Source of the DNA: an uncultured Elusimicrobia bacterium
Lineage (GTDB): Bacteria; Elusimicrobiota; Elusimicrobia; Elusimicrobiales; UBA9959
NCBI GenBank assembly: GCA_937870775.1
Contig: CALMZU010000180.1
Location: forward strand, 1 to 38,006
DNA: 38,006 nt
Direction of reading: 5' to 3'
How positions within the stretch are numbered: the first letter of the stretch is position 1; each line of letters begins with the position of its first letter. Below are positions 1,531-32,910 of the stretch, in pieces. The notes under the pieces were generated by a model. It saw only the letters and a list, made by a program, of their open reading frames with translations, was not told where the DNA came from and made no database searches. The position numbers and the translations under genes were made by a program.

Positions 1531-1559
1531 TTGACTTGCGGCTTTCCTGTTGTTATATT
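1531..1559 (+). promoter_or_regulatory. Sigma70-type promoter TTGACT-N17-TATATT
   Basis: TTGACT at 1531-1536, 17-nt spacer, TATATT at 1554-1559; the -10 ends 6 nt before ATG 1566. Confidence 0.75.
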
Positions 1560-1565
1560 ATCCTC

Positions 1566-2438
1566 ATGGAAACAGAACAGAAGAAGTCCGGCTGGAAGAT
1601 CTGGGTATACCTGACCCCGGTCTACATCATACTCGCCATACCGCTGGTAAAATGGACGATGCGGATAAATTCCGGCGACGTGGACCTTTCCAAGGACGAA
1701 TACAGCGCCTTCAACGCGCAGGACGGCGAAGTTAAGAAGGCCGACACCGCCGATTACGACCCCGGCCTCAGGGACGTCGGCTATACCGTGCGCTACCGCT
1801 CGGGCGACGACCAGGAGGAATCGCCGGCGCCGCAGGCCGGGGAGAGGCAGCCCCAGGCCAGGCCGGCCGGGCAGCAGCCTCAGCAGCAGGCCCGCGCTCA
1901 GGCGCAAGCGCAGCCCCAGCCACGCCAGCAGCCCCAGCAGCAGGCGGCGCAGGCCGGCACGCCCGAGCAGAACAAGACCAACCAGAGCTACGGCTCGCGC
2001 AAGGGCTACCTGACGCTGGCCGTCGGCAAGCTGATGAACAATCCCAAGGCCGTGAAGGCCATGATGAACAACGACTGGATCGTGAAGGGCTTCATGGCCA
2101 GGTCCACGGTAAAGGACGCCACCGCCAGCCCCCAGGCGCTCAAGAACTACCTGCAGACCTCCCCCACGGTCACGGCCTTCCTCAGCAACGGCATAGTGCA
2201 GGCCGCGATGAACAACCCCGAGATAGCCACGGCCTTCGCCTCCAGCGAGATGGCCTCGGCGCTGCTCTCCACGCCCGGCGTGCAGGGGCTGCTGGAGGAC
2301 CCGGAAGCGGTGCAGTCGCTGGTCAACAACAACCCGCAGGCCATGCAGCTGCTCACCAACCCCAACGTTATGAACGCCCTGGCCAGCAACCCCAAGACGG
2401 CCGGCCTCCTGGGCGGCATGGGCGGGGACCAGAGGTAG
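1566..2438 (+). CDS. Membrane-anchored protein with Gln/Pro-rich linker and C-terminal STI1-like Asn-Pro repeats
   Basis: METEQKKSGWKIWVYLTPVYIILAIPLVKW (one TM), a Q/P/A-rich linker, then repeats such as AAMNNPEIATAFASSEMASALLSTPGVQGLLEDPEAVQSLVNNNPQAMQLLTNPNVMNALASNPKTAGLLGG. Followed by an intrinsic terminator. Confidence 0.8.
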   Translation: METEQKKSGWKIWVYLTPVYIILAIPLVKWTMRINSGDVDLSKDEYSAFNAQDGEVKKADTADYDPGLRDVGYTVRYRSGDDQEESPAPQAGERQPQARPAGQQPQQQARAQAQAQPQPRQQPQQQAAQAGTPEQNKTNQSYGSRKGYLTLAVGKLMNNPKAVKAMMNNDWIVKGFMARSTVKDATASPQALKNYLQTSPTVTAFLSNGIVQAAMNNPEIATAFASSEMASALLSTPGVQGLLEDPEAVQSLVNNNPQAMQLLTNPNVMNALASNPKTAGLLGGMGGDQR

Positions 2439-19663: not shown

Positions 19664-20782
19664 TCAGGCCCGGCGGCCCAGGCCGGCCAGTATGGCCGGC
19701 AGGCCGGCGGCTACGGCCCGGCGCAGGGCGGCGGCCGGCGAGGGTTCCATTCCCGCCTCTATGACGCCGGCCACCCCCAGCCGGGACAAGGTCCGGCGGT
19801 CCTTTATCAGCGAGGAGCCGCATACCACCACGGCCGGCACCCCCAGCGCCCGCGCGGCGGCTATGGCCGCGCCCGGGGCCTTGCCGTAGAAGGTCTGCCT
19901 GTCGAAGCGGCCCTCGCCCGTTATCAGCAGGCCGGCGCGGCGCAGCAGCCGGCCGAAGCCGGCGCGCTCCAGCACATAAGCCGAGCCGTCCAGCAGCTCG
20001 GCGCCGAAGAAGGCGGCGAGCCCAGCCCCCAGCCCGCCAGCGGCGGCCCCGCCCTCGAGGCGGGCCACGTCCCGGCCGGGCCAGGCCTTCAGCACGGCGG
20101 CGTAGTTCCTGAGCCCCTCGTCTATGAGGCGCACCTCGCGCGGGCCGGCGCCTTTCTGCGGGCCGAACACGCGGGCCGAGCCCAGCGGGCCGAAAAGCCT
20201 GTTCTTCACGTCGGCGAGGCCGTACACCTTCACGCCGCGCAGCCGCGCGGCGCCGGTCCCGGGCAGCACGGCCGCCAGCGAGACCAGCCCACCAGCGCCC
20301 GGCCGCACGGGCCGCCCGTCGCGGCCCAGCAGCCTGAAGCCGAAACCCTCGGCGCAGCCGGCGCCCCCGTCGTTGGAGGCGCTGCCGCCGAGCCCCACCA
20401 CTATCTCGGTCGCGCCCAGCCGCACGGCCTCGGCCATCAGCTGGCCCACGCCTCGGGTGGTGGCGTCCATCGGCCGCAGCCCGCGGCCGTTCATATATTT
20501 AAGCCCGGAGGCCTCCGCCATCTCTATGACGGCGGTGCGGCCGGCCAGCAGCCAGCGCGCTTTCACGGGCTCGCCGAGCGGCCCGTCGACGGCGGTGCGC
20601 ACCAGGCGCCCGCCGAGCGCCGGGCGCAGGGCGTCCAGCAGGCCGTCGCCGCCGTCGGCTATGGCCAGGGCGTCCACCGCGGCCCGCGGCAGCGCGGACC
20701 TTACGCCGGCGGCCGCCGCGGCGGCGGCGCGCCGGGCCGTAAGCGTGCCCTTGAAGGCGTTCGGGGCTATCAAAATCCGCAT
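19664..20782 (-). CDS. Glycerate kinase (GarK-like)
   Basis: MRILIAPNAFKGTLTA, AIADGGDGLLDAL, EIVVGLGGSASNDGGAGCAEGFGF, ITGEGRFDRQTFYGKAP. Confidence 0.94.
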   Translation of the reverse strand: MRILIAPNAFKGTLTARRAAAAAAAGVRSALPRAAVDALAIADGGDGLLDALRPALGGRLVRTAVDGPLGEPVKARWLLAGRTAVIEMAEASGLKYMNGRGLRPMDATTRGVGQLMAEAVRLGATEIVVGLGGSASNDGGAGCAEGFGFRLLGRDGRPVRPGAGGLVSLAAVLPGTGAARLRGVKVYGLADVKNRLFGPLGSARVFGPQKGAGPREVRLIDEGLRNYAAVLKAWPGRDVARLEGGAAAGGLGAGLAAFFGAELLDGSAYVLERAGFGRLLRRAGLLITGEGRFDRQTFYGKAPGAAIAAARALGVPAVVVCGSSLIKDRRTLSRLGVAGVIEAGMEPSPAAALRRAVAAGLPAILAGLGRRA

Positions 20783-20788
20783 GTCTAA

Positions 20789-20794
20789 ATGATA
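20789..20794 (-). promoter_or_regulatory. Candidate -10 (TATCAT) of a leaderless glycerate kinase transcript
   Basis: Minus strand TATCAT-TTAGAC-ATG; 6-nt spacing and no SD. Confidence 0.5.
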
Positions 20795-20826
20795 GAATAA
20801 AGGGAAAGGGAGAAGCGAGGAAGGCG

Positions 20827-21477
20827 ATGAAAGAACGCACCATAGTCTACCGCCACGGCAACGGGCTCTACGTCAATCTGACGAACCGCTGCCCTAATTC
20901 CTGCGTCTTCTGCGTGCGCAACGCGTGGAAGATGGACTACCACGGCCACGACCTGAACCTCGGCGGCGCGGAGCCTTCCGCGGCCGAGGTGCTGCGCGAG
21001 GCCGGGCGCGAATGGGCGTCCGCCCCCTTCTCCGAACTGGTCTTCTGCGGCTACGGCGAGCCGACCATGCGCGTGGACGCGCTGCTGGAATGCGCGCGCG
21101 CCATAAGGTCCGGCGCCGCGGCCCCGCTGCCTGCCGGCCTGCGCATACGCGTCAACACCAACGGCCTCGCCAACGCGGTCTGGGGCCGCGACGTGGCCGC
21201 CGAGATGAAGGGGCTCGTGGACTCGGTGCACGTCAGCCTCAACACGCCCGACCCGGCCCAGTGGGCGGCGATCATGCGCCCCGAAGAGCGCTGGGCCGCG
21301 AACGGTTTCGAGAAGGTCAAGGAGTTCATACGCTCGGCGGCGGCCTCGCTGCCCGAGGTGTACGCCACCGCCGTGGAGGACAACGGCGTGGACACGGAGA
21401 AATTCAAGGCGCTGGCGGCGGAGCTGGGCGCGAAGCCCCGGCTGCGCCCCCGCCTGGACGACGGGGCGGACAAGTGA
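20827..21477 (+). CDS. Radical SAM protein (resembles the TatD-associated family)
   Basis: NLTNRCPNSCVFCVRN (Cx3Cx2C), FCGYGEPTMR, VNTNG; SD gaggaagg. Confidence 0.85.
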   Translation: MKERTIVYRHGNGLYVNLTNRCPNSCVFCVRNAWKMDYHGHDLNLGGAEPSAAEVLREAGREWASAPFSELVFCGYGEPTMRVDALLECARAIRSGAAAPLPAGLRIRVNTNGLANAVWGRDVAAEMKGLVDSVHVSLNTPDPAQWAAIMRPEERWAANGFEKVKEFIRSAAASLPEVYATAVEDNGVDTEKFKALAAELGAKPRLRPRLDDGADK

Positions 21478-21944
21478 TAGAACGCAAAGCGCTCCTCATG
21501 CTGCTGGCCGCGGCCGCCTTCGTGCTGGTCAGCGTGCCCAGCGTCATCGTGAACAACGCGGTGAAGAAATATTTCAATTTCGTCGGGCACTGGAGCGTGG
21601 CCACCGTCAAGCCGTCGCGCACCGCGCTGGTCCCGCCGGCGCACCAGCACCCTGTCCCGCAGGGCCCGCAGGAACCGCCGCAGCCCGAGCTGCGCTTCGT
21701 GAAGTTCACCGTCAAGATAGCCGGCGCGAAGGAAGTGAAGATAGCCGGCGACTTCAACCGCTGGAACCCCGACGCGCTGCCCATGATAAAGGCCGGCCGC
21801 GACTCGTGGGAGGCGCTGGTGCCGCTGCCGCCGGGCAAGTACAAGTACGTATGCCGCGTCGACGGGCAGGAGACGCTGGACCCGCTGAACCCTGACACGG
21901 CCGACGAGGCCGGCCGCAAGGTCTCGGTGCTCACCGTAAAATAA
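21474..21944 (+). CDS. Membrane-anchored CBM48/AMPK-beta-type glycogen-binding domain protein
   Basis: GTG start overlaps the upstream TGA (GTGA); one N-terminal TM, Pro-rich linker, then VKFTVKIAGAKEVKIAGDFNRWNPDALPM...WEALVPLPPGKYKYVCRVDGQETLDPLNP. Confidence 0.85.
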   Translation: MIERKALLMLLAAAAFVLVSVPSVIVNNAVKKYFNFVGHWSVATVKPSRTALVPPAHQHPVPQGPQEPPQPELRFVKFTVKIAGAKEVKIAGDFNRWNPDALPMIKAGRDSWEALVPLPPGKYKYVCRVDGQETLDPLNPDTADEAGRKVSVLTVK

Positions 21945-21951
21945 GGACCAT

Positions 21952-23622
21952 ATGAAAAAGACTTTATTCGCCACCCTGCTCTGCTGGGCAGGCGCCGCCG
22001 GAGCGCAGCAGGCCGTGCTCTGGGTACCCTCCTCGCTGTCCGGCTCCGACGCCGTGATAGCCGAGCTGGAGAAGAACAAGGCCCTGGCCATAACGGTCTC
22101 CGCCTCCGAGCTGCCGAAGGGCCTCGAGGAGCGTCTGCGCAGGCTGGAGAAGGAAGGCCGCCTCGAACTGGCGCTGCGCCCCGCCGGGGACGCGCCGCTG
22201 CCGCTGCTCTACGCCGCCGCTTCGCCCGACGTGAAATGGTCCGGCAAGCCTTCCACGGCCTCGCTCTCCTCCGACCAGTACTTCCTCGGCCTCAGGCTGG
22301 GCCTGGACAAGGAAGCCGCCGCCAAGGCCCTCGGGAAGGCCCCCTCCGGGCTGGCCGCCACGCCCGGCGGACTTACCGCCGATTACTTCCCGCTGGCCCG
22401 CGCTCTCGGCGTGAAATGGATAGCCTGCGGCCCGCTGGCCTCCACCGCCGCGGCCGTGCTGGAGAACGGCGGCGTCTACGCCGTGCCGTTCACCCTGTAT
22501 TCCTCCACCTCCCAGGCGGCCCCGTTCGTGGTCTTCGACGAGACCCTGCCGGGCGGGCTGGCCTCGTCGAGAGAGGCCCTGCTGGCCGAGCTGCGCGCGC
22601 CCGCCGCGCCGCGCCGCGTGACCGTGAGCGAGGCCCTGAAGACCGCCGTCTCCACCTCGCCGGCCGCCGCCGACATCTCGGCCGCGGCCTCGCCGTGGAG
22701 CGGCGACTATTCCGCCTGGGCCGCGGCGCCGGTGCAGGCCGGCGCGCTGGCCGCCATGGCGCAGACCAGGGCCGCGCTGTCGCTGCACCTCAATTCCTTC
22801 CAGGGTGACTACCGCCGGGCCCGGCAGGCCTTCGACGAGTATTTCGCCGCCGAGGACGGCGGCAAGCTGGCCGCGCTGGCCTCCGCCGACGCGGAGACCG
22901 CCTCCGAGGCCGAGGTGGAACTGCGCAGCGCCCTCGGCAACGCCTGGCGCGTGATGCAGAAAGCCCCGCCGCAGTGGGCCTTCTCCAGCCTCTCCGACGC
23001 CGTCTCCGGCGACGCGCAGGCGGAGAAGCTCTCGGTCTCGCTGTCAGCCGGCTCCTTCGAGATAAAGAACGTCTCGCGCAAGCCGGACGTGCCGGCCAAC
23101 GGGCCCAAGCTGTCCGCCGGCGCCGACCCCTACAAGGTCTGGAAGCTGGCCGCGCTGCGCGTGCAGGCCGGCCCCGACGGCACGACGTTCACGTTCACGC
23201 CGGCGGCCATCGACAATTCGCAGAAGAACCCTTCCGGCTTCAGCCACATAAGGCTGGACCTGTACATGGACATAAACGGCAGGCCGCGCGCGGGCATGAC
23301 CCGCCCGCTCGAGGGCAGGCCTCTCAGGCTTTTCCCCGACAGCGCCTGGGAGTACGCGCTGGAGGTCACCCCTTCGGCCGCGACGCTCTACCGCATCACG
23401 CCCAAGGGCCCGCAGCCGGCGGGCGTCTTCGCCCCCAAGGCCGAAGGCGGGGCGGTGACGGTGAGGGTCCCGGCCGCGGCGCTCAGGGGCAACCCCATGA
23501 ACTGGGGCTACGCCGCGCTGCTGCTGGCGCCGGCCGAAGGCGGCAAGTTCTCGCTGGCCGATCATATCGCCGACGACGTTTCCAACGGCTACATCTACGC
23601 GGTAAGGCCGGGCAAGCTCTGA
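21952..23622 (+). CDS. Secreted protein with degenerate GH57-like N-terminal region and glucodextranase-C-like C-terminal domain
   Basis: Signal peptide; RLELALRPAGDAPLPLLYAAASPD and APSGLAATPGGLTADYFPLARALGVKWIACGP resemble GH57 motif blocks with catalytic positions replaced; C-terminal DPYKVWKLAALRV...SHIRLDLYMDINGRP...NPMNWGYAALLLAP. ORF call firm, domain call inferred. Confidence 0.6.
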   Translation: MKKTLFATLLCWAGAAGAQQAVLWVPSSLSGSDAVIAELEKNKALAITVSASELPKGLEERLRRLEKEGRLELALRPAGDAPLPLLYAAASPDVKWSGKPSTASLSSDQYFLGLRLGLDKEAAAKALGKAPSGLAATPGGLTADYFPLARALGVKWIACGPLASTAAAVLENGGVYAVPFTLYSSTSQAAPFVVFDETLPGGLASSREALLAELRAPAAPRRVTVSEALKTAVSTSPAAADISAAASPWSGDYSAWAAAPVQAGALAAMAQTRAALSLHLNSFQGDYRRARQAFDEYFAAEDGGKLAALASADAETASEAEVELRSALGNAWRVMQKAPPQWAFSSLSDAVSGDAQAEKLSVSLSAGSFEIKNVSRKPDVPANGPKLSAGADPYKVWKLAALRVQAGPDGTTFTFTPAAIDNSQKNPSGFSHIRLDLYMDINGRPRAGMTRPLEGRPLRLFPDSAWEYALEVTPSAATLYRITPKGPQPAGVFAPKAEGGAVTVRVPAAALRGNPMNWGYAALLLAPAEGGKFSLADHIADDVSNGYIYAVRPGKL

Positions 23623-23639
23623 GCCGGCAAGGGGGATAC

Positions 23640-24395
23640 ATGGCAAAACGCGACGCGTTAGTGCGGTTCACCGATTCCTACCTGGATTCGTCCTCCGTCA
23701 AGGACGCTTCCCTGAACGGCCTGCAGTTCGAGGGTTCGCCCGACGTGAAGAAGATAGCCTTCGGCGTCTCGGCCTCGCTGGCCTGCATAGAGCGCGCGGC
23801 GGCCTGCGGCGCGCAGATGCTGATAACCCACCACGGCCTGCTGTGGGGCGAGGCGCGGCCTTTTTGCGGCCCGTTAAAGCGCAAGCTCGCGGCGCTGGTG
23901 GCCGCGGACATGTCGCTTTGCGCCTGGCATCTGCCGCTGGACCGCCACCCGGCCTGCGGCAACAACGCCATGCTGCTCAAGATGCTCGGCGCGAAGGGCC
24001 TCAGGCCTTTCGGTTCCTACAAGGGCGTGACCATAGGCTTCAGCGGCAGGCTGCCCAGGCCGCTGGAGATCGGCGAGATAGCCGCGGCGCTGGCCCTGAA
24101 GCTGGACGCCGAGCCGCTCTGCTTCCGCTTCGGCGCGAAGAAGATACGCACCGTCGGCGCCGTGAGCGGCGGGGCCTCGTCGATGTTCGACCAGGCGGCT
24201 GAGGCGGGATTGGACCTTTTCATCACCGGCGAGGCCGGCGAGCCGGCGCAGGAGTACGCGCGCGAGACCCGCTCCAACTTCATAGCGGCCGGCCACTACA
24301 ACACCGAGAAGCCCGGCGTGCAGGCGCTGGCCGCGGTGCTGGAGAGGAAGTTCGGCGTGAAGACCGAGTTCATAGACATCCCGAACCCGGCCTGA
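23640..24395 (+). CDS. Nif3-like dinuclear metal center protein
   Basis: GLQFEGSPDVKKIAFGVSAS, LITHHGLLWG, AWHLPLDRHPACGNNAML, FITGEAGEPAQEYARE, AAGHYNTEKPGVQAL; ATG 23640 with SD. Confidence 0.92.
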   Translation: MAKRDALVRFTDSYLDSSSVKDASLNGLQFEGSPDVKKIAFGVSASLACIERAAACGAQMLITHHGLLWGEARPFCGPLKRKLAALVAADMSLCAWHLPLDRHPACGNNAMLLKMLGAKGLRPFGSYKGVTIGFSGRLPRPLEIGEIAAALALKLDAEPLCFRFGAKKIRTVGAVSGGASSMFDQAAEAGLDLFITGEAGEPAQEYARETRSNFIAAGHYNTEKPGVQALAAVLERKFGVKTEFIDIPNPA

Positions 24396-24412
24396 CCCCG
24401 GCGGCCAGACAA

Positions 24413-24445
24413 GAAAAAGCCCCGCGGTCGCGGGGCTTTTCTTTT
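24413..24445. terminator. Bidirectional rho-independent terminator
   Basis: GAAAAAGCCCCGCG-GT-CGCGGGGCTTTTCTTTTT between convergent genes. Confidence 0.88.
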
Positions 24446-24459
24446 TGACGCCGGTGCGC

Positions 24460-25686
24460 TCAGGCGGTCTTCACCCGCGGGATCAGCAGCACCACGCAGG
24501 ACAGCGCCAGCACGGCGAGGCCGTTGAAGGCCAGGCAGAAATCCACCGAGAAGCGCTCGGCCAGCAGGCCGTTCACCATGAAGCCCAGCGGCATCACGGC
24601 GTAGGCCAGCGTGGTGAGCACCGAGAAGAACCGGCCCTTCATCTCGTCGGGCACGGCGCCCTGGAACAGCGTAAGGGCCAGCGCGTTGCCGCCGCCCAGC
24701 GCCGCGCCGCCCATGAAGAGCACGGCGCAGGCCAGGTAGCGGTCGGAGAAGAAGTATAAGCCGCCGAAGGTCAGTCCCACCAGCAGCACCGAAAGGAACA
24801 ACTTGCCGTAGAAGCCGCCGCGCGCCTCCCTGAAGCTCAGCCAGGCGGCCAGCGCCGCGGAGCCGCCGGCGAAGAAGGTCTCGAAGACGGCCAGCCAGGT
24901 CACCGACGCCGCCAGCTTGAACTTCACTATCATCGGTATCAGTATGAGTATCGGCGAGACGAAGAAGTTGAAGGCCGCGAAGGTCAGTATCAGCGCCAGC
25001 AGCGGCCGGTTGCCGAAGGTGTAGGCCAGGCCTTCCTTGAACTCGGCGATGAAGGAGCTTTCGGTCCGGGCCTCCGGCTTCAGTTCCGTCCTTATCCCCC
25101 ACACCGCGGCGAACGAGACCAGGTAGCCGCCGGCGTTGAACAGGAAGGCGCCGGCCACGCCGGCCGCGGCCATCAGCACGCTGCCGAGGGCCGAGCCTAT
25201 GACGTTGGACATCTGCAGTATCGAGGAGTCGGCGGCCACCGCCTGCGGCATCTTCTCTTCCGACGTGAGGCGCAGTATGGACGCCGCCTCGGCGCTCTCG
25301 AACAGCGGGCCGAAGCCGGAGATCAGGAAGCACACCGAGTACAGCCAGTAAAGGTTCAGCCGCCCGCTCCATAAGAGCAGGCCGAGCAGCAGCACCAGCG
25401 CGGCGCGCGCGGCGTCGGCGGCCAGCATCACGCGGCGCTTGTCCGAGCGGTCGGACAGCGTGCCCAGCAGCGGTCCGAAGATTATCACCGGCAGCACGTT
25501 CACCGCCATCACCAGCCCGAGGTGGAACTTGGAGCCCTCTCCGGCCGACGAGAGCACCCACCAGGCTATGGCTATGGAGAAGAACTTGTCGCCCACGGCC
25601 GACACCGACCGCCCGACGAAGAGCCGGCGGAAATCCGGGAACAGGAACAGCGGGTGGCCTTTCAGGGCGGAGTTCATCTGGAGCAT
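24460..25686 (-). CDS. MFS transporter
   Basis: About 12 TM segments; FRRLFVGRSVSAVGDKFFSIAIAWWVL and GPLLGTLSDRSDKRRVML (MFS motif A). Confidence 0.88.
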   Translation of the reverse strand: MLQMNSALKGHPLFLFPDFRRLFVGRSVSAVGDKFFSIAIAWWVLSSAGEGSKFHLGLVMAVNVLPVIIFGPLLGTLSDRSDKRRVMLAADAARAALVLLLGLLLWSGRLNLYWLYSVCFLISGFGPLFESAEAASILRLTSEEKMPQAVAADSSILQMSNVIGSALGSVLMAAAGVAGAFLFNAGGYLVSFAAVWGIRTELKPEARTESSFIAEFKEGLAYTFGNRPLLALILTFAAFNFFVSPILILIPMIVKFKLAASVTWLAVFETFFAGGSAALAAWLSFREARGGFYGKLFLSVLLVGLTFGGLYFFSDRYLACAVLFMGGAALGGGNALALTLFQGAVPDEMKGRFFSVLTTLAYAVMPLGFMVNGLLAERFSVDFCLAFNGLAVLALSCVVLLIPRVKTA

Positions 25687-27437
25687 CTTATTCCTTTATA
25701 GCCGCAGAGCCTCTCGACGTCGCGCATGAAGAGCGCCACGCCGTTGGCGGCGGAGCAGGGACCGCTCATCTCGGCCCCGCGCAGGTAGCGCGAGGCTTCG
25801 GCGCGCAGCGCCCGCAGCGGCACGCCGCCGGCCGCGAGCGGCGGCACGATGTTTATCAGGTCGCCGGGCCGCAGCCACTTGTACTCATGCGCCGCCAGCC
25901 AGCCGGCCGGCACGGCGGAGCGCCGCGCCAGCACGGCGATCTTCACGTCCCAGTACACCACGGCCCAGTCGCGCCGCGGCAGGTAGAAGAGGTAGTCGGG
26001 GCGCCACAACATAGCGGTGCCGCCGCCGGGCATGGTCTGCTTCACCGGCACCTGCGGCCCGCCCAGCTGCAGCACCACCAGGCCGAAGCCGTATTTTTCA
26101 AGGAAGGGCTTCCAGTTGGCGCTGTTCTCGGTAAGGCCTATGGCCTCGGGGATCTTCTCGTGGAAAAGGTAGCGGCCGTCCATGAACACCTTGTAGTCGG
26201 GCCCCAGCTCCCAGCCCAGCCAGCCGCCCCAGCCCCAGGGGTTGTACATGCGCAGCCCGGCGAGCGTGCCCTTCTCCGCCTTCAGGAAAGAGGCGAGCCC
26301 CTCGGAGGCGTTCTTGAAATCCGTGGCGCCGGGCGCGTAGTTGCGCCAGACGAAGCGGTTGTAATAAAGCCCGGTGAGCAGCAGGAAGGCCGCCGCGCCG
26401 GCGGCCGCCAGGGCGCGGCCGCGGCCGGAGAGCCGCACGCTCTCCCAGGGCAGCGCCAGCGTATAGGCCAGGCCGGTCAGCACGAAGAAGGGGATATGGC
26501 GGGCGTGGTTGGCCGAGGCCCAGGCGAAGAAGATCAAAGCGGCCAGATGCGCGTAGCGCACGTGGCGGCGGCGCAGCAGGAACCAGGCGAAGCAGCCGAA
26601 CACCGCCGGCAGCGCCAGCACGTAGGGCCACTGGTAGGCGTTCAGCAGGTCGAAGGTATGCCATTCCTGTATATAGGCCTGCAGGTCGGCCATGTACTTC
26701 TGGTGGTTGGCCAGCACGCCGTATATGTTCCAGCCGTAGGGGTTCACCAGGCTGGCCGCGAGGCCGGCCGCGAACAGCCGCATATGCCAGAGGGCGCGGG
26801 CCGGGCGGGCGAAAGGCGCGCGGCCGTATATAAAAGGCAGTTCCTCTTCCAGGAATTCCCCCGCCGCGTAAAGGCCTATCAGCGCCAGGCCGTACATGTA
26901 GCCGGCGTGCAGATTGGTCCACAGCGCGAAGAAGACGAAGGCGGCGGCCGCCGGCTTCCAGCCCGGCGCCAGGCCTTTCAGCCGCGCCCGCTCCAGCAGG
27001 TACAGCGTCACGGTGAAGAAGAGCAGCGTGAAGTTCTCGGGGCGCAGGTCGCTGTTGGACATCAGCGCGGCGGCGAGAAAGGGCAGCGCCGGCACCAGCG
27101 CGGCGCGGCGGCCGTACATCAGCGCGCAGGCCCTGAACACGAGCAGCAGCAGCACGAAGACCGCGGCCTTCAGCGCCAGCAGCGCGGGGAACCCGCCGGC
27201 TTTATAAAGGAGATAATAGAAGCCCTGGGTCAGCCATTCGAAATCCACCCACGGCGCCCCGTTCATGGTCCACGAAAGGGAGTCGGCGCGCGGCGGGCCG
27301 AAATGCTGCGCGGCCCAGCGCCCCGCCGAGAGATGCCAGAAAAGGTCGGGGTTTATGACCGGCAGCAGGAACACCGAGCAGGCGAAGGCGAAGGCCCCCC
27401 AGCCGAGTATGTTCAGCGTTCTTTCGCGGTCATGCAT
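25674..27437 (-). CDS. Polytopic membrane protein, possibly GT-C-like
   Basis: Many TM segments; early INPDLFWHLSAGRWAAQHFGPPRADSLSWTMNGAPWVDFEWLTQ typical of uncharacterised polytopic membrane families; overlaps the MFS gene by 13 bp. Confidence 0.75.
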   Translation of the reverse strand: MHDRERTLNILGWGAFAFACSVFLLPVINPDLFWHLSAGRWAAQHFGPPRADSLSWTMNGAPWVDFEWLTQGFYYLLYKAGGFPALLALKAAVFVLLLLVFRACALMYGRRAALVPALPFLAAALMSNSDLRPENFTLLFFTVTLYLLERARLKGLAPGWKPAAAAFVFFALWTNLHAGYMYGLALIGLYAAGEFLEEELPFIYGRAPFARPARALWHMRLFAAGLAASLVNPYGWNIYGVLANHQKYMADLQAYIQEWHTFDLLNAYQWPYVLALPAVFGCFAWFLLRRRHVRYAHLAALIFFAWASANHARHIPFFVLTGLAYTLALPWESVRLSGRGRALAAAGAAAFLLLTGLYYNRFVWRNYAPGATDFKNASEGLASFLKAEKGTLAGLRMYNPWGWGGWLGWELGPDYKVFMDGRYLFHEKIPEAIGLTENSANWKPFLEKYGFGLVVLQLGGPQVPVKQTMPGGGTAMLWRPDYLFYLPRRDWAVVYWDVKIAVLARRSAVPAGWLAAHEYKWLRPGDLINIVPPLAAGGVPLRALRAEASRYLRGAEMSGPCSAANGVALFMRDVERLCGYKGIRCSR

Positions 27438-27443
27438 GCCTCA

Positions 27444-27449
27444 ATTCTA
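27444..27449 (-). promoter_or_regulatory. Candidate -10 (TAGAAT) of a leaderless transcript for 25674..27437
   Basis: Minus strand TAGAAT-TGAGGC-ATG; 6-nt spacing. GAGG lies in the spacer but is only 2 nt from the ATG. Confidence 0.5.
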
Positions 27450-27496
27450 TAAAATAGGGGCTTCCATTTATAATATAATTGTCCTTGGGGAAAAGA

Positions 27497-28813
27497 ATGG
27501 CATATTTCAAAAAATTGAAAGCGGACCTCGCCGCGGCGGCGTCCGGCGGCATTATCACGCCCGAGCAGGCCGACAAGGTCTGGCAGGACGCCTACGCCCG
27601 CCGCCCCATGGCCGGCTTCAAGGCCGTGCATTTCATAGCGGCCGCCGCCGGTCTCTTCATAGCGCTGGGCTTCATACTGGTGGCCGCGCATAACTGGGAC
27701 AAGCTCGGCGCCATGCTGAAGATGGGCGTTTTCCTGCTGCTCCTCGCCGGCGTGGCCGAGGCCGCCTTGCGGCTGGACGAAAAGCCCGCCGCCGCCATCC
27801 CCCTCGAGACCCTCTGGTTCTTCATGCCTATACTGGGGATCGGGCTTTACGCGCAGATCTTCAACCTGAGCGGCGACCCGGTGAAGCCCTACCTCGCCTG
27901 GGCCGCGCTGTCCGCGCCGCTGGCGCTGCTGTCGCGCCGGCCGCTGGCGGCCAGCCTGAATTCCATACTGCTTTTCACCGTGCTGTTCTGGGGCACGCTG
28001 AACCAGGCCAGCCTGCTCTCTCTCACCTCCGGCTACGGCCGCCCGCCGCAGCCGCTCTGGCACTGGGCCGCGGCCCTGGCCGTGCTGGCCGCCGGCGCGG
28101 CGCTGTACCCCGGCCGCAAGACCGGCCTGCCGCTGGGCGCGGCCTGCGTCTGGACCTTCATCATGCTGGCGGCTGATACCGCGCTGAAGACCGGTTCCGG
28201 CACGCTGCTGCTGATGGCCGGCATGTCGCTTTCGGTGCTGTGGCTGGCCTGGGGCGGCCCCGCCGACGAGCTGCGCACCGGCCTGCCGCTCAAGATCTGG
28301 CTGGGTTCCGTTTACATGATGACCTTCTTCTGGCACCACACCGCCGGCGCGAGGGAACTTTTCCACGGCGCCACCTGGGCCGGCGCCGTTGCGGCCTGGG
28401 TCCTTTTCGCCGGCGCGCTGCTCACCATAGCCCTGCGCGGACAGCGGCTGCTGCCCGGCGGCAAGCAGGCCGACATGATCTCGAAGCTGCTGCTGGCCGT
28501 TTCGGTGCTGTCCTCCTTCCTGCTCTTCGGCGCCGACGACGTACAGCTGAAGGTGCTGGCCGCGCTGGCCAACTTCATACTGATAGCCTACGGCGCCGCC
28601 TGCATAGTGGGCGGCTCGGAGAACGCCGACGAGAAGGCCATAAACCGCGGCGTGCTGGTGATCACCCTCACCGCCATAACCCGCTTCGTGGACCTGTTCG
28701 GCGGCCTGCTGGCAAGCGGCGAGGCCTTCATAGTCACCGGCCTGGCTTTCGCGGCCCTGGCCTATTTCATCAATAAGGGCAGGAAGGCCCTTATAGAGGC
28801 GGCTAAGAAATGA
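27497..28813 (+). CDS. DUF2157 domain membrane protein
   Basis: N-terminal ASGGIITPEQADKVWQDAYARRP then a polytopic membrane region (FIAAAAGLFIALGFILVAAHNWDKLGAMLKMG...); ATG at 27497. Confidence 0.82.
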   Translation: MAYFKKLKADLAAAASGGIITPEQADKVWQDAYARRPMAGFKAVHFIAAAAGLFIALGFILVAAHNWDKLGAMLKMGVFLLLLAGVAEAALRLDEKPAAAIPLETLWFFMPILGIGLYAQIFNLSGDPVKPYLAWAALSAPLALLSRRPLAASLNSILLFTVLFWGTLNQASLLSLTSGYGRPPQPLWHWAAALAVLAAGAALYPGRKTGLPLGAACVWTFIMLAADTALKTGSGTLLLMAGMSLSVLWLAWGGPADELRTGLPLKIWLGSVYMMTFFWHHTAGARELFHGATWAGAVAAWVLFAGALLTIALRGQRLLPGGKQADMISKLLLAVSVLSSFLLFGADDVQLKVLAALANFILIAYGAACIVGGSENADEKAINRGVLVITLTAITRFVDLFGGLLASGEAFIVTGLAFAALAYFINKGRKALIEAAKK

Positions 28814-29325
28814 CCGGCCAGCAAAAGCTCCGCGTTTTCCTCGGCGCCCAGCTCCTGTTCTTCGCCGCCTGGGGCGCCTGGCTGATGTATTCCCGCTCGG
28901 CCGCTTCCGCCGAATTCGCGCTGGACACCGTGCCGGTCGACCCCAGGGACCTGGCCAGCGGCACCTACGTGGCGCTGAACTACCAGATCTCCTCCCCCGA
29001 AGCCTGCCGCCCGCTGCTCGAAGCCGGCGCCGCCGAGGCTTTCGTCGAGCTTAAGGACAGCGGCCGCCGCCAGAACACCGCCGCCGGCACGCTCCCGGTT
29101 TACCAGGCCGCGGGCTGCGCCGCCGCCCCGGGCGCCGGGGTCTGGGCCCGCGCCGAGATATACGGCGGCTTCGCCGGGCGCATCAACGCGCGCTACGGGA
29201 TAGAACGCTTTTACGTCAACGAGAACGACCCGCTGAAGAACTCGGCGGCGGGCTCGGTGGCGGCCAGGGTTAAGCTCGGGCGGGGCAACCGCCTGACCAT
29301 CCTCGGCCTCGAAAAAAAGATCTGA
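28810..29325 (+). CDS. GDYXXLXY-family protein
   Basis: ATGA overlap with the DUF2157 gene; DPRDLASGTYVALNYQIS (variant GDYxxLxY) and YGIERFYVNEND. Confidence 0.82.
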   Translation: MTGQQKLRVFLGAQLLFFAAWGAWLMYSRSAASAEFALDTVPVDPRDLASGTYVALNYQISSPEACRPLLEAGAAEAFVELKDSGRRQNTAAGTLPVYQAAGCAAAPGAGVWARAEIYGGFAGRINARYGIERFYVNENDPLKNSAAGSVAARVKLGRGNRLTILGLEKKI

Positions 29326-29327
29326 AA

Positions 29328-29386
29328 CGCCGGCGGACGCCAGTCCGTATTGCCTCCCGCCGGCGCGAGCCGCCCGGGCGGTTCGC
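29328..29386. repeat. Two inverted repeats sharing one base in the pyrB leader
   Basis: CGCCGGCGG (29328-29336)/CCGCCGGCG (29357-29365), and GCGAGCCGCC-CG-GGCGGTTCGC (29365-29386, one G-U). Confidence 0.7.
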
Positions 29387-29405
29387 CCTAAAAAAAGGAG
29401 CCCAC

Positions 29406-30464
29406 ATGCAGAGAACTCAGGAGATGACCAGCGTGCAGCCGGACTGGGAGACCTTTCACGCCCTTCCCGAAAGCGAGAAGATACCGTTCTTCTCCCGCGA
29501 CGGGCGCATGTACGACTGCCTGTTCGCGCAGCAGTTGAACCGGAACCTGCTGGAGCACCTTTTCAAGGTGGCCGACCGGCTGCGCGACGTCACGCAACAG
29601 AAGGCCGGGGCGGACCACGTCTCGTCCCTGCTCTCGGACAAGCGCGCCATGCTCTACTTCGCCCAGCCCTCCACGCGCACGTTCATGTCCTTCCTGAACG
29701 CCTGCCATATCATGGGCCTCAAGACCAGCGAGATCCGCGACACCAGCACCTCCTCCGAGGTGAAGGGCGAGACGCCCGAGGACACGGTGCGCACCTTCTC
29801 GAGCTACGTCGACATGATCATCATGCGCCACCCGGCGCCCGGCTTCGTCGAGAAGACCGCCTGGCTGATGAACCGCACCGGCCGCCCGGTGCCGGTCTTG
29901 AACGGCGGCTCCGGCAAGGACCAGCACCCCACGCAGGCGCTGCTGGACGTCTACACGCTGTACCGCAGCTTCAACGGCGACCTGGACAACAAGCGCATAG
30001 TGATGGTGGGCGACCTGAAGCGCGGCCGCACGGTGCGCTCGCTCTCCTACCTGATGCGCAACTACAAGAACCCCAGCCTGGTCTACGTCTCGCCGAAAGA
30101 GTTCAGGATGGAGGCCGACATACTGGAGTTCCTCAGGCGCAACAACATAAAGCACGAGGAGACCGAGGACTTCCGCGGCGCGCTCAGCGGCGCCGACGCC
30201 GTGTACATGACCCGCATACAGGACGAGCACGACAAGAACGGCGAGTCGAAGGGCGTGGACTACTCGCCCTTCTACTTCAAGAAGGAGCACCTCGGCCTGA
30301 TAAAGAAGAGCTGCGTCATCATGCACCCGCTGCCCCGCCGCCACGAGATAGAGGTGGCCGTGGACGACGACCCGCGCGCCATGTACTGGCGCCAGGAACG
30401 CAACGGCATGTGGGCCCGCGCCGCCCTGATCTCCTACGTCTTCGGCGTCGACGAGAGGATATAG
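29406..30464 (+). CDS. pyrB: Aspartate carbamoyltransferase
   Basis: PSTRTFMSF, DQHPTQALLDVYT, VGDLKRGRTVRSLSYL, MHPLPRRHEIEVAVDDDPRAMYWRQERNGMWARAALI; SD aaaggag. Confidence 0.88.
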   Translation: MQRTQEMTSVQPDWETFHALPESEKIPFFSRDGRMYDCLFAQQLNRNLLEHLFKVADRLRDVTQQKAGADHVSSLLSDKRAMLYFAQPSTRTFMSFLNACHIMGLKTSEIRDTSTSSEVKGETPEDTVRTFSSYVDMIIMRHPAPGFVEKTAWLMNRTGRPVPVLNGGSGKDQHPTQALLDVYTLYRSFNGDLDNKRIVMVGDLKRGRTVRSLSYLMRNYKNPSLVYVSPKEFRMEADILEFLRRNNIKHEETEDFRGALSGADAVYMTRIQDEHDKNGESKGVDYSPFYFKKEHLGLIKKSCVIMHPLPRRHEIEVAVDDDPRAMYWRQERNGMWARAALISYVFGVDERI

Positions 30465-30501
30465 CGGGGAAATAATCGAGTTATCGAGCAGCGTCCCCTA
30501 A

Positions 30502-30537
30502 AATAAAAAGGCCGCCCGGAGGCGGCCTTTTTATTTA
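30502..30537. terminator. Bidirectional rho-independent terminator
   Basis: AAATAAAAAGGCCGCC-CGGA-GGCGGCCTTTTTATTT between convergent genes. Confidence 0.9.
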
Positions 30538-30545
30538 CTTTACTT

Positions 30546-32819
30546 TTAGTCGGTGAGGGTGGAGGGGTCGGCGAAGCGGTCGCGCATCTGGTTGACCTCG
30601 GAGATCGTCTTGTCGAAGTTGTTGTCGCGATCGTTGAAGAACTCGTAGGTCTGGGTCACGTCGGCCTCGCCCTTCACGCGCTTGTCGGTGTGCACGTACA
30701 CCGAGGCGGAGATGTCGGAGGGGTTCACCAGCTGCACCACGACCTTCAGGAAGTCCTCGTAGCCCAGGCCGCTCTTGCCGCCGCCGGCCGCCACCTTGGA
30801 GAAGCGCTCGGACTGGTCCTTCCAGTTGGAGGCGTTCTTCACGGAGGAGATATCGCGTATAACCTGGGTGGCCGCGTAGGCCAGGTTGCGCACGATGTCC
30901 AGGGGGTTGGTGCCGTTGTCGTAGTTGTCGAAGGCGCTCACGCCCAGGCGCTTCTGCACGGCCTTGTAATCGTAGTCGACCTTGCCTTCCTTGTCGATGG
31001 TGAACAGGTCCATCACCTTGTCGACGATCTCGCTCTCGACCTCGCGCATCACGTTCATATAGGCCTTCATGATGGCCTGCGCCGGGGCGAAGATGATCTC
31101 CTGCACGCCGCGCTCGTTGATCATCAGCTTGAAGCTCATCACCGCGCTCTTATAGGTCTTGGAAGGGGTGGTCTCGAAGCCGTCGGCGTCCGTCTCGGAA
31201 GGGAGCGGCGGGAAGATCTCGGTGGAGGGCAGGGTGTTGGCAAGGTCGGTGCCGTTGCCGTTCACGCCCACGTAGCGCAGAACGCCGTTGGCCTTCTCCA
31301 GCATGTAGCGGGCGGTGCCGTCGCCTTCCTTCACGAAGCCTTCGTACTGCTGGTACAGGAAGGCCGGGCGGGTGGCGGTGCCGTCGGTGCTCTCCTTGTT
31401 GATCACGTAGACGTTCTTGTTGGAATCGTACTTCATCACCTTGCCGACGAAGGGGATGTTGAGCGAGCTGCCGTTGGAGGTGCGGGCGTTCTGCTGCACG
31501 TGTATGGTCTCGCCGTCCTTCTCCAGCGACTGGTAGCGGTTGTAGGAGGAAGCCCAGGTGGTGTCGTGGGTGTGGATGACCGGCACCTGTATGTGCAGGT
31601 TGTTGGAGGTGCCGTGGTAGATGTCGGTGCCGGCGAAGGAAGGGGAGGCGCCGAGGGCGCTGCCGGCCGCGGTGGCCGCGCCGGCCAGCTCGCCGACGCC
31701 GCTGGAGGCCTGGTCTTCCTCGGAGAAGTGGTTGAACTTCAGGCCCATCTCTATGAAGCGCTTCAGGATGCCGAAGTCGCCGCGCAGGAACTTAACCAGG
31801 TTGTCCATCTGCTGGGGATCGTTGGCGTCCAGCAGGAACTCTATCATCAGTTTCTTGCCGACGGTCTTGGAATGGCCGAAGGAGAGCTTGGCGGCCAGGT
31901 ACTCGTTGATCTCCTTGGAAACCTGCCTGTTGATCTCCTTGTTGAGCAGCTTGGACACGGCGTTCTCGCCGCCGATAAGGCCCAGGTCCACCATCGGGAT
32001 CTCCACGGTGCCGGCCGACACGCCGACGCTGCGGACCATCACGCGGTCCAGGCGCATGCGCAGGCGGAGGGTGTCCTTGTCCATGCGGTAAAGGGTAACG
32101 GAGGGCTTGGAGTCGCGGCTCTGGCCGGCCGACACGGAAACGTTCAGGACCTCGCTCAAGGTGGCGCCGGCGCCCACGCTGAAGCCGAAGTGCAGGGTGA
32201 CGGGCAGCTTCCAGATCTCGCCCACGGCCATGCCGGTTATGCGCTTCTCGTTGACGGGGAGTACGGTCTTGACCTGGTAAAGCTTAACAAGGGTGTCCAG
32301 CTCGCGGCAGTACTTGTCGCTCTCGAGCGGGCGCACCACTATGGAGGTGCCCTCGGCCTTGGCCGAGACGCTGACGTTCACCGGCAGGGAGCCGCCGGGG
32401 TTGGCCACCTCGTGGCCGTAGGAACCGCCCACGCTCACGCCCACCTCGTCTATCAGGGCCACCTTCTCGCTGGGGAGCTTCTTAAGGTAGCGCTTGAACT
32501 TGCCGCCCACCACAAGGGCGTCGCCGGCCAGCTTGCCGTCCTCGTTGAGCTTTATCTGCGCCTGCTTGCAGATGCCGTCCACGGTGTCTTCCTTGAGGTT
32601 CTCCCAGAAATGAGCGAACTCGGCCGACAGGCCGCCGGTGGAGGCGGTGGACACGGTGGGGGCCTTGATGTCGGCCGAGGAGGCCTTCAGGCCGTTCACC
32701 ATGTCGCCGAGCGAGCCGACGCCGCGATCGAAGTCGAAAGCGGCGGCGGAAGAGGCCAACAGGGCTACGGAGAACAACGCGGAGGAGATACCGAGGAACG
32801 TGGGTTTGGTATTTCGCAT
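30546..32819 (-). CDS. Large secreted protein of unknown function (about 757 aa)
   Basis: Signal peptide MRNTKPTFLGISSALFSVALLASSAAAFDF at ATG 32819; no recognised domain; downstream terminator. Confidence 0.82.
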   Translation of the reverse strand: MRNTKPTFLGISSALFSVALLASSAAAFDFDRGVGSLGDMVNGLKASSADIKAPTVSTASTGGLSAEFAHFWENLKEDTVDGICKQAQIKLNEDGKLAGDALVVGGKFKRYLKKLPSEKVALIDEVGVSVGGSYGHEVANPGGSLPVNVSVSAKAEGTSIVVRPLESDKYCRELDTLVKLYQVKTVLPVNEKRITGMAVGEIWKLPVTLHFGFSVGAGATLSEVLNVSVSAGQSRDSKPSVTLYRMDKDTLRLRMRLDRVMVRSVGVSAGTVEIPMVDLGLIGGENAVSKLLNKEINRQVSKEINEYLAAKLSFGHSKTVGKKLMIEFLLDANDPQQMDNLVKFLRGDFGILKRFIEMGLKFNHFSEEDQASSGVGELAGAATAAGSALGASPSFAGTDIYHGTSNNLHIQVPVIHTHDTTWASSYNRYQSLEKDGETIHVQQNARTSNGSSLNIPFVGKVMKYDSNKNVYVINKESTDGTATRPAFLYQQYEGFVKEGDGTARYMLEKANGVLRYVGVNGNGTDLANTLPSTEIFPPLPSETDADGFETTPSKTYKSAVMSFKLMINERGVQEIIFAPAQAIMKAYMNVMREVESEIVDKVMDLFTIDKEGKVDYDYKAVQKRLGVSAFDNYDNGTNPLDIVRNLAYAATQVIRDISSVKNASNWKDQSERFSKVAAGGGKSGLGYEDFLKVVVQLVNPSDISASVYVHTDKRVKGEADVTQTYEFFNDRDNNFDKTISEVNQMRDRFADPSTLTD

Positions 32820-32825
32820 GTAGAT

Positions 32826-32831
32826 AGTATA
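32826..32831 (-). promoter_or_regulatory. Candidate -10 (TATACT) of a leaderless transcript for 30546..32819
   Basis: Minus strand TATACT-ATCTAC-ATG; 6-nt spacing and no SD. Confidence 0.6.
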
Positions 32832-32910
32832 GCGTTCCCCGGCCTTTTTCATAAGAGGCCGAGTGCCTATATTCCCGATGTTTTAAGGCCTATGAAAACC
32901 GAGCCCGGCA

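What the first reader, a model, noticed from the sequence alone, without database searches (positions are those of the whole stretch)
20780..32831. A shared TANNNT-N6-ATG architecture at four unrelated genes
Four starts in the window have a -10-like hexamer exactly 6 nt before ATG: TATATT-ATCCTC-ATG (1566 +), TATCAT-TTAGAC-ATG (20782 -), TAGAAT-TGAGGC-ATG (27437 -), TATACT-ATCTAC-ATG (32819 -). None has an SD at normal spacing. The identical spacing across unrelated genes suggests a defined class of leaderless mRNAs in this lineage. Only the first has a convincing -35.
Basis: partly seen in the sequence, partly recalled or inferred. Interest (0 to 1): 0.68.

Follow-up and report, generated by a model that had tools for sequence, protein, structure and literature searches.

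The report
Leaderless gene starts in Elusimicrobia bacteria
About one in ten genes of this uncultured Elusimicrobia bacterium, including the four in the window, carry their promoter box exactly where transcription would start on the start codon itself, so their messages probably have no leader; this is a known bacterial strategy, for which I found no earlier report in this group.

Summary
In 736 kb of the same genome, TANNNT before in-frame start ATGs peaks sharply at N6 (53; shuffle mean 10.9, sd 3.1, maximum 19), with a shoulder at N7 (32), and no peak at out-of-frame ATGs. Whole-genome counts are TATAAT-N6/7-ATG 63 against N12/13 13. The sites concentrate in first-of-operon and divergent genes, lack Shine-Dalgarno motifs (0 of 67), and have a pyrimidine just before ATG in 43 of 45 N6 cases, as expected if transcription starts on the A of ATG. 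All four window promoters are conserved in same-genus genomes, mostly with N6 or N7 spacing. The signature is clear in most families of the same class, weak or absent in other classes of the phylum. Best explanation: a sigma-70-type, mostly -35-less class of leaderless mRNAs coexisting with SD-led genes, i.e. the TA-led/-10-motif class known from Deinococcus-Thermus and Actinobacteria, here in Elusimicrobiota. No start-site data exist, so leaderlessness is inferred.

The parts
1531..1536 (+). -35 element TTGACT of the 1566 gene, 17-nt spacer to the -10
   Evidence: read from sequence; TTGACT conserved in 9 of 9 same-genus orthologs
1554..1559 (+). -10 element TATATT, N6 before ATG
   Evidence: TATATT (TATAGT in one) at N6 or N7 in 9 of 9 orthologs
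1566..2438 (+). predicted leaderless gene A; C-terminal ubiquilin/STI1-like repeat match, otherwise uncharacterised
   Evidence: gene call, Pfam
20789..20794 (-). -10 element TATCAT of glycerate kinase gene, N6 before ATG
   Evidence: 13 of 13 orthologs
20785..20801 (-). 17-bp conserved block TTTATTCTATCATTTAG containing the -10 and its AT-rich extension
   Evidence: present with at most 1 mismatch in 21 of 21 genus genomes; verified upstream of glycerate kinase in 13
20793..20798 (+). TAGAAT, candidate divergent -10 for the radical SAM gene at 20827 +, sharing TA with TATCAT on the other strand
   Evidence: read from sequence; radical SAM gene adjacent in all 13 loci; promoter function inferred
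19664..20782 (-). predicted leaderless gene B, glycerate kinase
   Evidence: Pfam Gly_kinase E 3.3e-104
27444..27449 (-). -10 element TAGAAT, N6 before ATG
   Evidence: TAGAAT at N6 in 6 of 9 close orthologs, start displaced in 3
27441..27456 (-). conserved block TATTTTATAGAATTGA
25674..27437 (-). predicted leaderless gene C, protein with no Pfam match (587 aa, hydrophobic)
32826..32831 (-). -10 element TATACT, N6 before ATG
   Evidence: TATACT, TAAACT or near variant at N6 or N7 in 12 of 12 relatives tested
32850..32868 (-). conserved upstream block AGGCACTCGGCCTCTTATG (genus form GGGCACTTGGCCTCTTATG); its end gives a weak -35 17 nt from the -10; rest a possible activator site
   Evidence: function inferred
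30546..32819 (-). predicted leaderless gene D, probably secreted protein with no Pfam match; start 32819 rather than the upstream ATG at 32852
   Evidence: upstream ATG not kept in several relatives while the -10/N6-7/ATG is; Pfam

Best explanation
The four sites are sigma-70-type promoters whose -10 element (TANNNT, consensus TATAAT, preceded by a 6-7 nt AT-rich block often ending in T or TG, mostly without a recognisable -35) lies 6 nt before the ATG. RNA polymerase would then start on the A of the start codon, giving an mRNA with no 5' leader and no Shine-Dalgarno site, which the ribosome engages at the 5'-terminal AUG. The four genes belong to a genome-wide class, about 10% of genes and about 19% of first-of-transcription-unit genes, that coexists with ordinary SD-led genes and is clear in most sampled families of this class of Elusimicrobiota. 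Shown: the positional motif, its genome-wide peak, lack of SD, association with first genes, pyrimidine at -1, conservation in orthologs and lineage distribution. Inferred: transcription start on the A, sigma-70 recognition and leaderless translation.
For: N6 peak at in-frame start ATGs: 53 (N7 32) against about 11 at other spacings, shuffles 10.9 +/- 3.1, and none at out-of-frame ATGs. Whole genome TATAAT-N6/7-ATG 63 against N12/13 13. First-like genes 63 of 258, divergent genes 44 of 132, internal genes 21 of 372. No SD in 67 of 67; AT-rich block plus TATAAT logo; few -35. Pyrimidine at -1 in 43 of 45 N6 cases against 265 of 464 other ATG genes. Hexamer and spacing kept in orthologs of all four window genes. 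Same peak in other families and another order of the class.
Against: No transcription-start or N-terminal data. In three orthologs of gene C the start codon is displaced from the conserved -10 block, and some paralogs of gene D have SD leaders instead. Individual sites cannot be told from chance by motif alone: about 11 of the 53 N6 matches are expected by chance. Class families f4, f6 and f9 show little of the signature.
Confidence: 0.9

Rival explanations
1. The TA-rich motif is a translational signal (unstructured, A/U-rich 5' UTR, for example bound by ribosomal protein S1) in mRNAs with longer leaders, not a promoter.
For: AT-rich stretches before starts in non-SD genes have been interpreted this way as an alternative (PMC5397173).
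Against: A sharp hexamer at fixed N6-7, bias to first and divergent genes, pyrimidine at -1, GC-rich DNA just upstream of the block, and a divergent pair with only 23 bp between the two ATGs.
Confidence: 0.05
2. These are -10 elements but transcription starts a few bases upstream or downstream, so the mRNAs have leaders of 1-5 nt rather than none.
For: N7 shoulder in this genome and displaced starts in some gene C orthologs.
Against: N6 is the mode in three orders/families sampled and the -1 pyrimidine/+1 A initiator fits a start on the A.
Confidence: 0.15
3. The four sites are chance matches in the window.
For: In-window enrichment is marginal.
Against: Genome-wide peak far beyond shuffles, and conservation of all four promoters in the genus.
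Confidence: 0.01

Closest known systems
TA-led leaderless genes of bacteria (Zheng et al. 2011, PMC3160421)
   Same: TANNNT core with its first T about 12 bp upstream of the start, statistical excess over dinucleotide shuffles, coexistence with SD-led genes, no SD at the TA-led genes.
   Different: The paper's list of groups with leaderless genes does not name Elusimicrobia. In that survey high-GC genomes keep only TANNNT; here, at 63-66% GC, positions 4-5 of the hexamer and an upstream AT block are well conserved.
-10-motif genes of Deinococcus-Thermus (PMC12340547)
   Same: TANNNT a few bp before the ORF, mostly no -35, tested there as an RpoD promoter of leaderless genes.
   Different: Lower share of genes here (about 10% against about 30% there); not tested experimentally here; AT-rich block upstream of the hexamer.
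Bidirectional promoters with symmetric -10 elements (Warman, Grainger and colleagues; PMC12825309)
   Same: The glycerate kinase/radical SAM pair and the pair in L110 have -10-like hexamers on both strands sharing a central TA.
   Different: In L110 both genes appear leaderless with only 23 bp between the ATGs; divergent start sites were not measured.

Membership tests
TA-led leaderless genes / -10-motif genes | TANNNT at fixed distance, first T about 12 bp before the start codon | tested here: met
   N6 peak
TA-led leaderless genes / -10-motif genes | Excess over dinucleotide-preserving shuffles of upstream regions | tested here: met
   53 against 10.9 +/- 3.1, maximum 19 of 200
TA-led leaderless genes / -10-motif genes | No Shine-Dalgarno motif at these genes | tested here: met
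   0 of 67
TA-led leaderless genes / -10-motif genes | Mostly no -35 element | tested here: met
   TTGACA match of 5 or more at spacer 16-18 in 7 of 67, against 0-2 at control spacings
TA-led leaderless genes / -10-motif genes | Transcription start coincides with the start codon | not testable with these tools
   no transcript data; -1 pyrimidine in 43 of 45 N6 cases is indirect support
TA-led leaderless genes / -10-motif genes | Hexamer works as an RpoD-dependent promoter | not testable with these tools
   needs reporter or in vitro transcription
Bidirectional symmetric -10 promoters | -10-like hexamers on both strands sharing bases in one core | tested here: met
   ATTATATAAT between divergent starts in L110; ATTCTATCAT in the window block; two cases, not a statistical test
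Bidirectional symmetric -10 promoters | Divergent transcription from both strands observed | not testable with these tools
   no transcript data

The most novel reading that the evidence does not exclude
One class of Elusimicrobiota uses a distinct AUG-specific initiation mode: an AT-block-plus-TATAAT promoter with no -35, fixed so that polymerase starts on the AUG, compact enough that two divergent leaderless genes can share one palindromic core of about 22 bp. Some cores (the 17-bp glycerate kinase block, present in all 21 genus genomes) would be frozen because they serve both strands or also bind a regulator. The weak or absent signature in sister classes would mark a gain or loss of the strategy inside one phylum.
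Probability: 0.3. Interest if true: 0.58.

Novelty: new member of a known kind. Interest (0 to 1): 0.47.

Why it matters
It extends predicted leaderless expression to a little-studied, mostly uncultured phylum and gives a phylogenetic contrast (most of one class with it, other classes with little or none) in which gain or loss of leaderless initiation can be studied. In practice it affects gene-start annotation in these genomes: for the 32819 gene my coding-potential caller chose an upstream ATG that overlaps the conserved promoter region.

Tried and rejected
GTG/TTG starts as part of the class: no peak. The upstream block of the 32819 gene as a known RNA element: no Rfam match in the window. 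The same block as a multi-gene regulon: at most 2 hits per genome, so no broad regulon shown. The blocks of the 20782 and 27437 genes as one shared regulatory motif: they share only ATTCTAT/ATAGAAT and otherwise fit the general promoter logo. The literature search found no paper on leaderless genes in Elusimicrobia; only openly licensed papers could be searched, so an earlier report elsewhere is not excluded.

Full report
Setting. The window is one contig (G000:C180) of a 2.64-Mb, 361-contig assembly, 97.7% complete. Its seryl-tRNA synthetase is 85% and 76% identical to those of two Elusimicrobia metagenome-assembled genomes, so it is a member of Elusimicrobiota. The window is 66% GC.

Observation. 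All four sites are exactly as described. The window has six matches to TANNNT-N6-ATG in all; the two others are antisense inside called genes. Six against 2.65 expected, with 5 of 100 shuffles reaching six, is only marginal, so the window alone could not settle the matter.

Genome-wide test. I fetched about 698 kb of other contigs and, with the window, called 678 genes using a home-made hexamer coding model that uses no upstream signal. Counting all ATGs without gene calls, TATAAT-N6-ATG occurs 18 times and N7 9 times, against 0-4 at other spacings; GTG/TTG shows no peak. Anchored on in-frame ATGs near gene starts, TANNNT occurs 53 times at N6 and 32 at N7 against about 11 at other spacings; out-of-frame ATGs in the same regions give 5 and 4, their background level. 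Dinucleotide shuffles of the upstream sequences give 10.9 +/- 3.1, maximum 19 of 200. The whole genome has 63 TATAAT-N6/7-ATG against 13 at N12/13. Part of the fetched contigs came from a list made by a motif search, but the whole-genome counts do not have that bias.

Character of the class. The sites sit at first or divergent genes: 63 of 258 first-like and 44 of 132 divergent, against 21 of 372 internal. After subtracting background this is about 19% of first-like genes and about 10% of all genes. None of 67 good cases has an SD motif at 3-11 nt, although the genome as a whole uses SD clearly. Aligned on the hexamer, the promoter is T-A-T(55%)-A(78%)-A(82%)-T, where the two Ts at the ends and the first A were required by the search. 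It is preceded by a 6-7 nt AT-rich block (T 72% three bases upstream, TG in a share of cases) inside GC-rich DNA; only 7 of 67 have a good TTGACA-like -35 at 16-18 nt. The base before ATG is a pyrimidine in 43 of 45 N6 cases against 265 of 464 other ATG genes. This property was not used in choosing the set and fits a transcription start on the A of ATG.

Conservation. In same-genus relatives (protein identity about 40-70%) the promoters of all four window genes are kept. Gene 1566: TTGACT and TATATT (TATAGT in one) with N6 or N7 in 9 of 9 close orthologs; a few more distant ones lack it. Glycerate kinase 20782: TATCAT at N6 in 12 and N7 in 1 of 13, two of them with GTG, inside a 17-bp block that occurs with at most one mismatch in 21 of 21 genus genomes; pairwise identity is about 0.8 in the last 20 nt against 0.3-0.4 further upstream. 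Gene 27437: the -10 block is kept in nine close orthologs with small changes, N6 in six; in three the start codon is displaced. Gene 32819: TATACT, TAAACT or a near variant at N6 or N7 in 12 of 12 tested, while other paralogs have SD leaders; the ATG at 32852 that my caller preferred is missing in several relatives, so 32819 is the likely start.

Lineage. Pattern counts in 150 genomes of the phylum give N6/7 to N12/13 ratios of 3.2 in the genus, 1.7 in the rest of the family, 2.3 in the other family of the order (40 of 43 genomes above 1.5) and 2.0 in other families of the class, though families f4, f6 and f9 show little. The 79 genomes of other classes give 1.09. Gene-anchored profiles agree: N6 peaks in G014 (29, with T at -1 in 24) and G097 (23, with C at -1 in 16), none in G041 of another class (5). 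The small pooled excess in other classes is not zero, so 'weak or absent' is the fair statement.

Mechanism. The best reading is a sigma-70-type promoter with an AT-rich extension, placed so that transcription begins at the start codon; the mRNA is leaderless and translated from its 5' AUG. A translational A/U-rich signal does not explain the sharp hexamer spacing, the first-gene bias, the -1 pyrimidine, or divergent genes whose ATGs lie only 23 bp apart (L110 9228-9250, core ATTATATAAT).

Comparison. This matches the TA-led class of Zheng et al. 2011 (PMC3160421), whose list of bacterial groups does not name Elusimicrobia, and the experimentally tested -10-motif genes of Deinococcus-Thermus (PMC12340547). 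I found no earlier report for Elusimicrobia, within the limits of the library. It is therefore a new lineage for a known kind. Added points are the well-conserved hexamer and AT block in a GC-rich genome, the class-level contrast within the phylum, and promoter cores shared by divergent genes.

Limits. No transcript or protein data exist here; leaderlessness is an inference from sequence and evolution.

Noticed in passing
L110:9228-9250 (G000:C191): Two divergent genes whose ATGs are 23 bp apart share a palindromic core ATTATATAAT with N6 on one side and N7 on the other; both appear leaderless, a minimal bidirectional promoter.
   Followed up: partly
window 20783-20826: The 17-bp block between glycerate kinase and the divergent radical SAM gene is nearly invariant across 21 genus genomes, more than a -10 alone would need; it holds -10-like hexamers on both strands.
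   Followed up: partly
window 32850-32868 -: Conserved block GGGCACTTGGCCTCTTATG upstream of the 32819 gene in relatives, a possible activator site; one related copy in the same genome lies at L111:11278-11296 -, 17 nt before a TATAAT.
   Followed up: partly
whole genome G000: The palindrome-like pattern GAAGGCC-N6-GCCTTC (2 mismatches) occurs 887 times against 144 for its reversed control; probably codon usage, not checked.
   Followed up: no
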